From Halichondria panicea (taxonomy: Eukaryota > Porifera > Demospongiae > Suberitida > Halichondriidae), in contig NC_087392.1 of the NCBI RefSeq assembly GCF_963675165.1, forward strand, positions 1,689,001 to 1,753,000: a DNA stretch of 64,000 bases, given 5' to 3'. Below the pieces are notes generated by a model. The model was not told the origin of the DNA, did no database searches, and saw nothing but the letters and a program-made list of their open reading frames with translations. The position numbers were made by a program, and so were the translations under genes. Shown here in pieces: positions 8,214 through 38,723 of the stretch; the first letter of the stretch is position 1; each line of letters opens with the position of its first letter.

Positions 8214-9452
8214 ATGGCTACTCGTTTTCTCAATCACCCAGCAGGTATGTTGCTAGCTCACTGACCACTGTGAAACCTTTGTCACTTGCTGAAATTTCTA
8301 TGCAGGTCCCAAAACCATATTTTTCTGGGCACCGGCTTTCAAGTGGGTGAGTGAATTGTTTATTATTATACACTAGACTATGACAGTTAAAATTGGTTGT
8401 CAGTGATCCTAGATACACTACCTGATATACTAAAGATGGTCGTAATTCTTGGTAATTGTTATTATTTTTATTATTATAATTATGCCTCGTGCGCATGCGC
8501 AACCGAGGTATACGGTAGTGTGTTTGTGTGTGCGTGTGTGTTTGTGTGTGCGGGTGTGTGTGTGTAGACTGCTACAGCTGCTTAAGGATCAATGAAGTGC
8601 AAGTAAGAGTTTCTATAGGCTTCTAGTCATGTTTTCTTGGTCGTGGATTTGCAAAATAATGCTTCGTTCTTGAGTTATGCCTAGTTTTTTGCTTACTTGG
8701 AATGCCATTGCAGAAAAGTGCGTAGCGAAACTTGTCCATGGAGTGTTACTACTCTACTTAGTAGTTAGCTCTGCACTAGAACACTAGCTATTGGTAGCTG
8801 CAACAGTGAGAAGAGAGCTGCAAGGCTCTGCTGCTACTAGCAGCCATTCAGACTTGGACTTTTGGCATCGATCGTTTTTAACAACAATCATTCCCACTGG
8901 TTGAGTTTCTCTGTTCTGCATGCAGCAAAATTTTATAACATCATGATGTGTGACAGTGTAATAGCTATATAGCTGTAGCTTTATGTTATGTAGCTTTGAC
9001 ACCTCCACCGAGGCATCAGCACCAGTGGTGCTTTCATTATTATAGTTTTTAATTTGTTACATTCCCCCATGCAGGGTCTTGTAGTAGCTGGTCTGGCTGA
9101 CATGCAGAGGCCTGCAGATAAGCTGAGTGTCTCCCAGTCCTCTGCTCTGGCCGCAACTGGGGCCATTTGGTCTCGCTACTCTCTGGTCATCACCCCAGTC
9201 AACTACAACCTTTTTGGTGTCAACATCTTTGTGGCCATGACTGGGTTCTATCAACTCTACAGAATTTGGAAGTAAATTGTCTTCCCTCCACACATACACA
9301 CACACATTTACGCTAAATTCAAATTTCGAGCAAATATTCCTTTTCCCTGAATGTCAGTAATAGAGCTTTGCAGATAATTATGATTTTCCTCTTCTCCCTG
9401 CAGCCACAAGAAGGAGCAAGCAAAGACTGAGAGCGAACCAAAATCTAGCTAG
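8214..9452 (+). CDS. MPC2: Mitochondrial pyruvate carrier subunit 2
   Basis: Four exons (8214-8244, 8306-8346, 9075-9271, 9404-9452) join in frame to a 105-residue protein. Key motifs are NHPAGPKTIFFWAPAFKWGL, GLADMQRPADKLS, GAIWSRYSLVITPVNYNL and FYQLYRIW, matching MPC2 throughout; the N-terminus is shorter than the vertebrate protein's. MPC2 pairs with MPC1 in the inner mitochondrial membrane to import pyruvate; MPC1 is also in this window at 34955-35596. The three hydrophobic segments expected for MPC2 are visible. The 728-bp intron 8347-9074 is large for this locus and contains a repeat-like block. The next gene (CNG channel) starts 233 bp downstream on the same strand. Confidence 0.97.
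8479..9016. mobile_element. Possible dispersed repeat inside MPC2 intron 2
   Basis: The enlarged intron starts with TGCCTCGTGCGCATGCGCAA, then GAGGTATACGGTAGTG and a TG-rich tract, and near 9007-9016 has ACCGAGGCAT, roughly an inverted match to the left TGCCTCG. The block looks unlike the surrounding small introns. The inverted match is short and no clear target-site duplication is seen, so this is tentative. Confidence 0.35.
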
Positions 9453-9685
9453 ACAAGACTACAGTCCACATGCACATGTATACCCGCACATTTATATACT
9501 ATAGAGTGTCTGTAAAATGCAACAAAAAGATGTTTTTTTTAGTGGTACTGGTACAAGCAGATTGCTGCAGACCAGCCCCACCCACCTTATTCTGTCACGC
9601 CCAGCAAAGGAAGCCATGTGTGGAGTCCACCATAAATCATCTTCACACCATTGCATTGAAAAATCACACTACACTCTGATATGGT

Positions 9686-34954: not shown

Positions 34955-35596
34955 TCACTTTTTGGTAGAACTGCAAAAAAAAGAAAGAAAGGCAGTTATA
35001 CAATTGGGCAACAACATTCTTAGCTGTAACTTACTGATGATGTATCACTCTGCCTAACTGAGTGAGCTGGGTTGCCTCGTTCGTGAAATGACACGCAAAC
35101 AGGAGCATGTTTCGAGGCTGAACCTTTATCGCAAACCTCATGAACAGTGCGGAGTAGATACACAGTGCTAGGGAGGATGGAGAGGATAACAAGAGGACAC
35201 ATACAACGAACAAATTTCAAAGCTTTACCGACTGTCATCTTTGGGCTGATGATCTCCGGGTCTTTCTTCATGTCAGCCATAGCAGCTAGAGGCAGTCCCC
35301 AGTTGGCAACAGGACCCCAAAAATGCTGAAATGGGTCAAGCAATACATTAACACACAGTTCTATGCTAGCTCTATACTAGAGCTCAAGCTACTTACTGTG
35401 CTGTGGAAGGGGAGTTGCAATTTAATACAGCCAATGGTGAGTGACATCAGATGGTGTGTGTGTGTGTGTGTGTACGTGTGTTTGTGGTGTTCAAACGGAA
35501 TTTTACACAAGTACAAAACGTAACAGCTTACCTCATAAAATACTCCCTGGTTTCTTTGCTCTTCAGCTTGTTAATAGCACGCCTGACAGCCATCAT
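34955..35596 (-). CDS. MPC1: Mitochondrial pyruvate carrier subunit 1, with a predicted 4-nt microexon
   Basis: Exons on the minus strand: 35532-35596, a 4-nt microexon 35397-35400, 35229-35325, 35035-35167 and 34955-34970; total 315 nt, 104 residues, close to the usual 105-110. Protein: [20 protein letters not shown], then [76 protein letters not shown]. All conserved MPC1 signatures are present. Without the microexon, exon 1 (phase 2) and the next exon do not share a frame; with CACA they give exactly the conserved Ser-Thr before HFWG. MPC1 and MPC2 form the inner-membrane pyruvate importer. It is head to head with the FANCG-like gene, and DOP1 starts 250 bp downstream on the same strand. 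Confidence 0.97.
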
Positions 35597-35850: not shown

Positions 35851-38723
35851 ATGTCTTCACAACTGGCCCAAGCTGAGGCACACTTCAGGAGTGGGAGAGT
35901 GGAGGAGTGTGCTCAGCTGCTGGAAGCAGGTAGATCTATCTACTAGGTACTAGGTATGTCCTACAGATTACATTCAGTTGTGTGTGATTGTATGCAGTGT
36001 TGTCTGCAAGTGCCCAGTTCAGCAGAGCACAATGGCGGACCAGTGCGAACCTGTTGGCCTGCAGAATGAAGGTTGGTACCAAACTCAAGCATGCACTTGT
36101 ACACTAACCCTCTCTTCACTTCAGGCCGCCCTGCTCCACGATGATAATGACCAGCTGACATCAGTGCAGAGATTGTATAAATTGCTCTGGGAGAAGATTG
36201 TAGGTACATCTAACTTGTACACATAGATCTACAACATTTGTTTCTAATATCTATTTTCATACACAGGTTTGCCTGTGTCCGGTGGTAGCTTGCTTACTGA
36301 GATGACAGTGACATTCACCCTCTGCCAGCTGGAGCATGTACTCATGTCCAGAGGGCGTCTGATGTCATCCTCTGCCCTCTCCTGTGTGGACTGCCACTGT
36401 CAGAGATGTAAGAACAGCTACATTGTAGGGCTCTGTAATCTCTGTATGAGTTTCATTATATTTATCTAGGTGGACAATTTCCATTCAAATGCAGTTTCTT
36501 ATGAAGAGAGATCGTGTTGACTCAGAATAATTATGTGTTTCTTTTCCCTCTGTAGTGTGTGAGTATTGCGGAGTGGAGTGGGTGGGGCTAACTGCTTCTC
36601 TCCCCCACCTTGTGAGCTGTCTGACTGGACGGAAAGACCTCCTTCTAAAGATGGCCTACCTTGCTGCTGTGCTACTAATGAGGACTTCAGATACTCGGAG
36701 AAAAGGTCGTGCTCTAATGTCTACCCTATTCTCCGACCTCCAGCCACAACAGGAGTCACATGACTTAGTGGACGAGGGATCACATGCTTCAAATGGGATC
36801 AATCTTGCCCTCGCTGTTAAGGATCATCTAAACGCTGATTGTGGTGATCTTCAATACCTCAAAGGTAATTTCATCCCAATTATGATTATTGTGAAACTCA
36901 TTTTGTAGCCTGGCGATTGTTTTGTGATGGAGAGTACACGAAGGTACTCAGTACACTCAGAACAGCCACACCCTCACCCACCACCAATCTGCTACGAGGA
37001 CACTGCCTTGCAAATTTGGTTAGGCAAAGAGTGATAGTGCATAGAAGAAATGGATTTATGTACCTGTATGTGTCAAATGTTCAACCAAAATCCGAAGCCT
37101 AATTATACATAGCTGCGTACATAGACTACTACCACATCCTTCCCTCACAGAGCAAGCCTCAGTCGGCCCAGTGCTGCTACCTGAGTTGTCTCACCTCTCA
37201 CTGTCAAGTGGCCTCTCTCCCAGCCATGACGGCTTCTTGTGCACTGTACAGACATGCCTCCAATACTGAGGCAGAGATGGAAGCCATGACACTCAAACTG
37301 GAGGTAAGGATGCTGTGTTAGTGCTTCCAGAGTTAAATAGAGTATGCTTTCGTCTTTTGGTCTCAAGAATATTTTCATGTACATACTCCTGCGTTAGGCA
37401 ACAACTATAATACAGTATTACCCTATTGTAGGCCCTACGGAGCACATGTGGGTGTGTGGTTGAGGGTGTGCTCTGGTGGCGAGGGGAGGGGCTACACGAT
37501 GACCCAGCGCTGATATCTGATATACAGTGGGCAGAGTCAGCCTACAACACTGCCCTCAGGGCGCTTAAACATAGGAGGTGAATATTCCTGACAATAATTC
37601 TTATACAGGGACTTTTGTTACTTTGTAGATATGAGATGGCCGGGCGTGTGTTGAGGGATCTGCTCGCGTGTGGTCCCCTCTGCCCCCCTCTCCCCCCGTC
37701 TTCCCTTATCCACCTCTTATTGGCCAGAACCCTTCTACTCTCTGGTAACCCCATTGAGGCATGGGAGGTGTGTGAGCGATTGATTGACCATCTCTCCATC
37801 TTGGAGCTAGAGGAGTGTACTCTACACTCTGTGCTAAGTCTCTGTCAGTCACTGTTACTGGGGGCCCTCTCACTGGTTGCCAGGGGGGACTGGGACAAGG
37901 CAAAGTGTAGCTCACACAAGCAAGTGTCTCTTAATTCACTCTAAATTAATTATGTCCACATAAGAACAGCAAGTCTATGGTAGCCATGTTAGTGAATTTC
38001 TTTGTTTTTTTGCATTGTTTTAACAATTATGTTTTGCTTGTACAGGAGTTACCAGGTGTGTGGTTTCCTCATCTCACGACTGAGCCGGGATACAGAGGGA
38101 GTGGCTGATAGTCTGCAACCAGCTGTCCTAGCAATCATGGTTGGAGCAAGTTTATAATGTGTCATGCTAAAGTCTGTGTTTTGTGTAAAGTGCAAATTTG
38201 CTCATACGATGATAATATTTGGTTAATTAGATTTCAATATTCCACTCTTTAGGTGCACTTTAGTATATACTTACGATAATCTCTTACACTCCTAGGAGCT
38301 GAACCTGGTATTGATGGCTGGCCTATGTGTGGGAGGAGGGGAACGAGATAAAGCACTCTCTCTGCTCACTACCACCGTCTCCCTCACACCCACACCCTCA
38401 CTTCTCACACTCTACAACTACGCCCTACTACTGACACAACGAGGCAAGCTGAAGGAGGCGGCTAACAGCTGGCTAGGGAAGCGTGGCCAGTTGCCGAGCA
38501 ATAAGACCGAGGCTCGACATATGATTGTTGATAAGAAGAAATCGGCCAACCCTGGGTAAGTGTAATGTTAATATTAATATTTATGGTTGCACGCCTTTGC
38601 TGAACTATATCCGACATGATATGCATGTAATAATTTGACTGGTGTGTGATTTATCAATGCAGGGACTTTGAGCGTTTTGATGTGGCCATGCTGAGAGTGT
38701 GGATCAGACAATGCTCTAGCTAG
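35851..38723 (+). CDS. FANCG: FANCG-like TPR protein (Fanconi anaemia core complex)
   Basis: About ten exons, from MSSQLAQAEAHFRSGRVEEC to a C-terminus RFDVAMLRVWIRQCSS (stop 38721-38723). The protein is mostly helical repeats of TPR type: LLTEMTVTFTLCQLEHVL, DGEYTKVLSTLRTA, HLLLARTLLLSGNPIEAWEV, LLGALSLVARGDWDKA, YNYALLLTQRGKLKEAANSW. Length, repeat spacing and several local matches (ELTVT near the N-terminus, CERLIDHLS in the third repeat block, the final LWWRLE/NSWLG helix and C-terminal WIR) agree with my memory of FANCG/XRCC9. TPR proteins diverge quickly, so the name is probable rather than certain. FANCG holds together the core complex that monoubiquitinates FANCD2-FANCI in crosslink repair. 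A Cys cluster (CVDCHCQRLCEYC) spans the junction of two exons near 36415/36557. MRPS9 follows 134 bp downstream. Confidence 0.6.

What the first reader, a model, noticed from the sequence alone, without database searches (positions are those of the whole stretch)
35397..35400. A 4-nt microexon (CACA) in MPC1 restores frame and a conserved motif
Seen: exon 35532-35596 ends in phase 2 (ATG AG) with a GTAAGC donor, while the next clear exon (ending at 35325) must begin at codon-boundary CAT for HFWGPVANW; no other AG near it can fix this. Between them the minus strand reads CCTTCCACAG|CACA|GTAAGTAG, a textbook acceptor and donor around four bases. Inserting CACA gives AGC ACA CAT, the Ser-Thr-His of STHFWG found in MPC1 of other animals, and yields a complete 104-residue protein. 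Exons this small challenge exon-definition splicing and are usually missed by gene predictors.
Basis: partly seen in the sequence, partly recalled or inferred. Interest (0 to 1): 0.85.

Follow-up and report, generated by a model that had tools for sequence, protein, structure and literature searches.

The report
Four-base exon in sponge MPC1
A sponge's gene for a mitochondrial pyruvate carrier very probably contains a four-base exon at the same place as the four-base exon already known and tested in the human gene, so the feature looks real and ancient but is not a new kind of thing.

Summary
On the minus strand, CACA (35400-35397) lies between ...CTTCCACAG and GTAAGTAG. Adding it joins exon 35596-35532 to exon 35325-35229 in frame and gives a 104-residue MPC1 that aligns without a gap to PDB MPC1 through [12 protein letters not shown] (69 of 100 identical, E 1e-43; Pfam MPC 117 bits). 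Leaving it out brings a stop right after residue 34. It is far the best of six frame-restoring candidate exons, and 0 of 20,000 shuffles gave an equally strong site that also encodes Ser-Thr. It is the only CAG-N4-GTAAGT in the window, both strands.

It is not new in kind. Human MPC1 exon 2 is a constitutive 4-bp microexon, TACG, studied with minigenes (PMC9929638). TACG and CACA fit the same frame context (AG|Y ACN) and differ only at two synonymous third positions. The genome carries silicatein-like exons, so the host is most likely a siliceous sponge. The simplest reading is an ortholog of the human microexon, kept since the common ancestor of sponges and vertebrates. My searches listed no report of it outside vertebrates. 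No transcript was available, so splicing itself is inferred.

The parts
35532..35596 (-). MPC1 coding exon 1 (from ATG; 65 nt, ends in phase 2: ATG AG), donor GTAAGC
35401..35531 (-). intron 1, 131 nt; no AG between the donor and the terminal CAG; possible branch points CTGAT (A at -47) and CTCAC (A at -38), consensus matches only
35397..35400 (-). 4-nt microexon CACA (third base of Ser plus the Thr codon)
   Evidence: human counterpart TACG in PMC9929638
35326..35396 (-). intron 2, 71 nt, GTAAGTAG ... TTTCAG
35229..35325 (-). MPC1 exon 3 (97 nt), [12 protein letters not shown]...
35035..35167 (-). MPC1 exon 4 (133 nt)
34955..34970 (-). coding part of exon 5, ending in TGA

Best explanation
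CACA is exon 2 of the sponge ortholog of MPC1, a constitutive 4-nt microexon that corresponds to human MPC1 exon 2 (TACG). Shown in sequence: an acceptor and a strong donor four bases apart, a frame that needs them, and a protein that matches known MPC1 without a gap. Inferred: both short introns (131 and 71 nt) are removed independently, most likely intron 1 first, which leaves ...ATGAGCACA|GTAAGT with a usable donor, and then intron 2. Its role is only to complete the codons for Ser and Thr before HFWG; it must be included every time, because skipping shifts the frame of the whole transporter. Also inferred: the two introns date back to the common ancestor of sponges and vertebrates. The confidence given is for the exon being real and included; given that, I put common descent at about 0.9 against parallel gain.
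For: Exact sites. Frame, and the best score of six frame-restoring candidates: 17.9 bits against 4.2 for the next. Shuffle and tile controls. Single CAG-N4-GTAAGT in the window, both strands. Ungapped alignment to PDB MPC1 through MSTHFWG, 69 of 100 identical; the MPC1-like chain also has STHFWGP there (the call names no species, I take both as human from memory). Pfam MPC. Human exon 2 is TACG, with no skipped transcript detected even with cycloheximide; 67 bp upstream plus 6 bp downstream suffice. TACG and CACA differ only at third codon positions. The genome search found three MPC matches, two of them exons of this gene and one of MPC2, so no second MPC1 or retrocopy was seen. Silicatein-like exons point to a siliceous sponge.
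Against: No RNA evidence. No other sponge or invertebrate sequence could be fetched (no relative found, in collections of prokaryotes and viruses). The exon's own last bases (ACA) are poor for U1: the donor scores 7.0 with exon positions against 9.2 without them. The human upstream features are not visible here: no TGTCTG repeat in intron 1, and 14 of 25 pyrimidines at -67 to -43 against 22 of 25 in human. Human boundary letters beside TACG were not seen; the position is inferred from TACG plus the protein. Four direct joins without the microexon are also open.
Confidence: 0.95

Rival explanations
1. No microexon: exon 1 is joined directly to an upstream acceptor of exon 3 (before 35371 or 35365), giving a protein with 16 or 14 residues before HFWG in place of Ser-Thr.
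For: Both joins are in frame and stop-free; they are the best two of four such direct joins (residue counts).
Against: Weak acceptors (2.7 and -1.1 bits), loss of the conserved Ser-Thr, and non-conserved residues in a stretch that otherwise aligns without a gap to PDB MPC1.
Confidence: 0.02
2. The frame conflict is a sequencing or assembly error and the strong sites around CACA are chance.
For: Read support for this assembly cannot be seen here.
Against: An error would restore the frame but not supply Ser-Thr. The chance control found 0 of 20,000 shuffles with an equal score and Ser-Thr, and the human gene has a 4-bp exon encoding the same residues.
Confidence: 0.01
3. The microexon is real but arose independently of the human one (parallel intron gain). 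This shares the real-and-included part with the best explanation and differs only in origin.
For: Upstream intron features described for human (distal pyrimidine tract, TGTCTG repeat) are not seen here. Only two species are compared.
Against: It needs two intron gains at the same two positions; equal position, length and coding content are simpler by descent. Intronic signals are not expected to persist over such distances.
Confidence: 0.08

Closest known systems
Human MPC1 exon 2, 4-bp constitutive microexon TACG (Koh et al. 2023, PMC9929638; abstract, passages, sections 7, 8, 9, 12 and 15 read; figures and supplement not seen)
   Same: Same gene, same length, same coding content (third base of Ser plus Thr), between exon 1 and the HFWG exon
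   Different: Letters CACA against TACG (synonymous); flanking introns 131 and 71 nt against over 12 and 3 kbp; no TGTCTG repeat or dense distal pyrimidine tract seen here; inclusion not tested here
Plant 1-nt microexons of APC11 and VPS55 (PMC8831610; start of abstract in a listing and 12 passages seen)
   Same: Microexons that are not multiples of three, kept over long times and missing from reference annotations
   Different: Other genes, other kingdom, 1 nt
Human TNNI1 4-bp microexon (named in PMC9929638)
   Same: Same length, coding, no skipping seen in endogenous transcripts
   Different: Described there as a tissue-specific gene; its flanks did not suffice in the reporter

Membership tests
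MPC1 (mitochondrial pyruvate carrier 1) | MPC domain over the curated cut-off | tested here: met
   PF03650 117.2 bits, cut-off 27
MPC1 (mitochondrial pyruvate carrier 1) | Closer to MPC1 than to MPC2 | tested here: met
   PDB MPC1 150.6 bits against MPC2 41.3 bits; the window's other MPC gene shows the reverse, MPC2 134.2 against at most 31.9 for MPC1-type chains
Orthologous MPC1 microexon | 4-nt exon with acceptor and donor on either side | tested here: met
   (sequence only)
Orthologous MPC1 microexon | Same coding position and phase as human TACG (AG|Y ACN|CAY) | tested here: met
   Sequence here; human TACG from PMC9929638 placed by the protein MSTHFWG (species recalled); human flanking letters not seen
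Orthologous MPC1 microexon | Included in mature mRNA | not testable with these tools
   no transcript data
Orthologous MPC1 microexon | Human-like upstream element: pyrimidine-rich -67 to -43 and TGTCTG repeat (part of the human mechanism, not a definition of the exon) | tested here: not met
   14 of 25 pyrimidines, no TGTCTG in intron 1
Siliceous sponge host | Silicatein (cathepsin L-like with Ser in place of the active-site Cys; definition recalled) | tested here: met
   CGASYA exons twice on C2 and CGSSYA exons twice on C6; one 40-residue piece matches silicatein alpha 6zq3 best in the PDB, E 1.6e-11, next a cathepsin L1 chain at 4.8e-10. A short piece, so the margin is modest

The most novel reading that the evidence does not exclude
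A 4-nt exon, not a multiple of three, has been kept at one position in one gene since the common ancestor of sponges and vertebrates. The sponge splices it by short-intron (intron-definition) logic without the upstream element that the human exon depends on, so the exon would have outlived a change in how it is recognised.
Probability: 0.5. Interest if true: 0.45.

Novelty: new member of a known kind. Interest (0 to 1): 0.32.

Why it matters
It extends a known human microexon to a sponge, which would make it a very old very short exon in animals. It also gives a compact natural test (131- and 71-nt introns) of how the spliceosome handles two sites four bases apart. In practice it warns that MPC1 gene models in non-vertebrate animals may be broken at this exon (an expectation; no annotation was examined).

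Tried and rejected
Four direct joins without a microexon, and the five other frame-restoring exons of up to 199 nt (at least 20 nt from both neighbouring exons), were enumerated and rejected on splice score and protein fit. The second CAG in CACAGCACAG as acceptor was rejected by reading: AG|TAAGTAG gives Ser-Lys-stop. A retrocopy of MPC1 as a natural cDNA record was sought and not found among the three MPC matches. Orthologs were sought in genome contigs and viral contigs without success; these collections hold prokaryotes and viruses, so this says little. The species was not identified: none of the 10 sponge genome notes listed (12 of 13 papers listed) gives a 131-Mb assembly, one search found no paper, and the COX1 search gave one short fragment with two TGA codons and no full gene.

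MPC2, the partner gene, was modelled to see whether it has a matching microexon. It has exons of 31, 41 and 197 nt and a last one from 9404, with introns at other positions and no microexon (identified as MPC2).

Branch points are consensus matches only. Intron 1 lacks any AG between donor and terminal CAG: 107 of 20,000 composition shuffles do so, and 3 of 1,040 window tiles. That would suit a distant branch point as in the human gene, but intron 3 (61 nt) is AG-free too (7,985 of its 20,000 shuffles are), so I do not lean on it.

Recalled, from no call: that the PDB MPC1 and MPC1-like chains are human, and that silicatein is defined by Ser in place of Cys. A review on non-canonical splicing (PMC13149111, two passages) does not name MPC1.

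Full report
What is there. On the minus strand of the window, CACA at 35400-35397 stands between CCTTCCACAG and GTAAGTAG. The 22-base string has one match in the 131-Mb genome. The gene around it has coding exons 35596-35532 (65 nt), 35400-35397 (4), 35325-35229 (97), 35167-35035 (133) and 34970-34955, with introns of 131, 71, 61 and 64 nt, all GT-AG. The spliced product is 104 residues. It is MPC1: Pfam MPC 117.2 bits; PDB MPC1 150.6 bits, E 1e-43, no gap over query residues 4-103 and 69 of 100 identical; PDB MPC2 only 41.3 bits. The call does not name the species of the PDB chains; I take them as human from memory.

Is it more than chance. Exon 1 ends in phase 2 and exon 3 must start at CAT. 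Leaving CACA out shifts the frame and brings a stop after residue 34, with 8 stops in the stretch translated. In the interval there are six frame-restoring, stop-free candidate exons of up to 199 nt; CACA scores 17.9 bits and the next 4.2 (weights recalled, human-like). Of 20,000 dinucleotide shuffles of the intron core, 9 matched the score with an exon of up to 30 nt, 3 of these with one of at most 10 nt, and 0 encoded Ser-Thr. Of 1,430 real tiles (half-overlapping, both strands), 2 matched, both with the same 28-nt site. CAG-N4-GTAAGT occurs once in the window on both strands, here. YAG-YACN-GTRAGT occurs 371 times in the genome on both strands, with 179 for the reversed pattern, so about 3 in 10,000 for an interval of this size.

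The known counterpart. A paper search for MPC1 and microexon gave one paper: PMC9929638. I read its abstract, passages and sections 7, 8, 9, 12 and 15. Human MPC1 exon 2 is 4 bp, TACG. It is included without detectable skipping, also under cycloheximide; 67 bp upstream plus 6 bp downstream suffice for inclusion in foreign introns; shortening the exon to 2, 1 or 0 bp leaves splicing intact. The paper says the exon and its proximal introns are conserved across species, in a supplementary figure I could not see. Placed by the protein MSTHFWG, TACG is the third base of Ser plus the Thr codon, as CACA is here. The two differ at two of four bases, both synonymous third positions. Human flanking exon letters were not seen.

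The host. The genome has 77 matches to the papain family. I looked at the active-site region in the 30 given loci and in three fetched regions: exons with CGASYA occur twice on contig C2 (one on each strand of the fetched stretches) and with CGSSYA twice on C6, in place of CGSCWAF. A 40-residue piece matches silicatein alpha (6zq3) best in the PDB, at E 1.6e-11, against 4.8e-10 for the next, a cathepsin L1 chain. One abstract in a listing calls silicatein alpha a hydrolase of siliceous sponges (PMC7565869). The host is therefore most likely a siliceous sponge; the species is not identified. Common descent of the microexon from the sponge-vertebrate ancestor is the simplest reading but rests on two points, human and this sponge.

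How it works. Both introns are short, which suits pairing of sites across the intron. The likely order is intron 1 first, giving ATGAGCACA|GTAAGT, and then intron 2; this order is inferred. Intron 1 has no AG between its donor and its terminal CAG, and has possible branch points at -47 and -38, which would be compatible with a distant branch point as found at -68 and -63 or -64 in human. This is weak evidence, since intron 3 is AG-free too. The human upstream pyrimidine block and TGTCTG repeat are not found (14 of 25 pyrimidines at -67 to -43). If the human exon needs them and the sponge exon does not, recognition has changed while the exon stayed.

Print status. Searches for MPC1 with microexon (one paper, the human one), microexons in sponges and early animals (20 of 1,611 listed; 8 of 10; 10 of 346), MPC gene structure (5) and BRP44L with micro-exon (none) listed no report of this exon outside vertebrates. 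The library lacks most subscription papers and the listings are partial, so this does not show absence from print. For comparison, plant 1-nt microexons of APC11 and VPS55 are long conserved and missing from annotations (PMC8831610, passages).

Neighbours. The partner gene MPC2 lies in the same window on the + strand (best PDB match MPC2, 134.2 bits) and has no microexon. A Dopey gene follows MPC1 on the same strand (Pfam Dopey_N 149.4 bits).

Verdict. The finding is real and correctly interpreted, but it is an ortholog of a known and experimentally studied human microexon. The added value is its phylogenetic depth.

Noticed in passing
window 8214-9463 (+): MPC2, the partner subunit of MPC1, lies about 26 kb from MPC1 in the same window: exons 8214-8244, 8306-8346, 9075-9271 and from 9404. 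The genome search found no MPC match outside these two genes. Whether this linkage is old is unknown.
   Followed up: partly
window 34705 (-) and 35851 (+): A Dopey gene (Pfam Dopey_N) has an ATG 250 bases after the MPC1 stop on the same strand, and a + strand reading frame with a weak, below cut-off TPR match starts at 35851, head to head with MPC1 across about 250 bases, as with a shared promoter.
   Followed up: partly
G000:C1, C2, C3, C4, C5 (partial list): CAGTACAGTGAGT recurs at about 1.2-kb spacing in short runs, several of them close to contig ends, as in a subtelomeric tandem repeat.
   Followed up: no
L036, L037, L038 (G000:C2:653000-671000, G000:C6:199000-208000): Silicatein-like exons with Ser at the place of the papain-family active-site Cys, two on C2 and two on C6 (one tested).
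   Followed up: partly
L014, L015, L017-L021 (G000:C8:493345-521186): A cluster of seven long open frames (422-502 codons) with a papain-type domain; six have CGSCWAF and one (L018) has CGSSWAF.
   Followed up: no
L005 (G000:C1:5280527-5280718): A 192-base COX1-like fragment with two in-frame TGA codons, possibly mitochondrial DNA in the nuclear genome.
   Followed up: no
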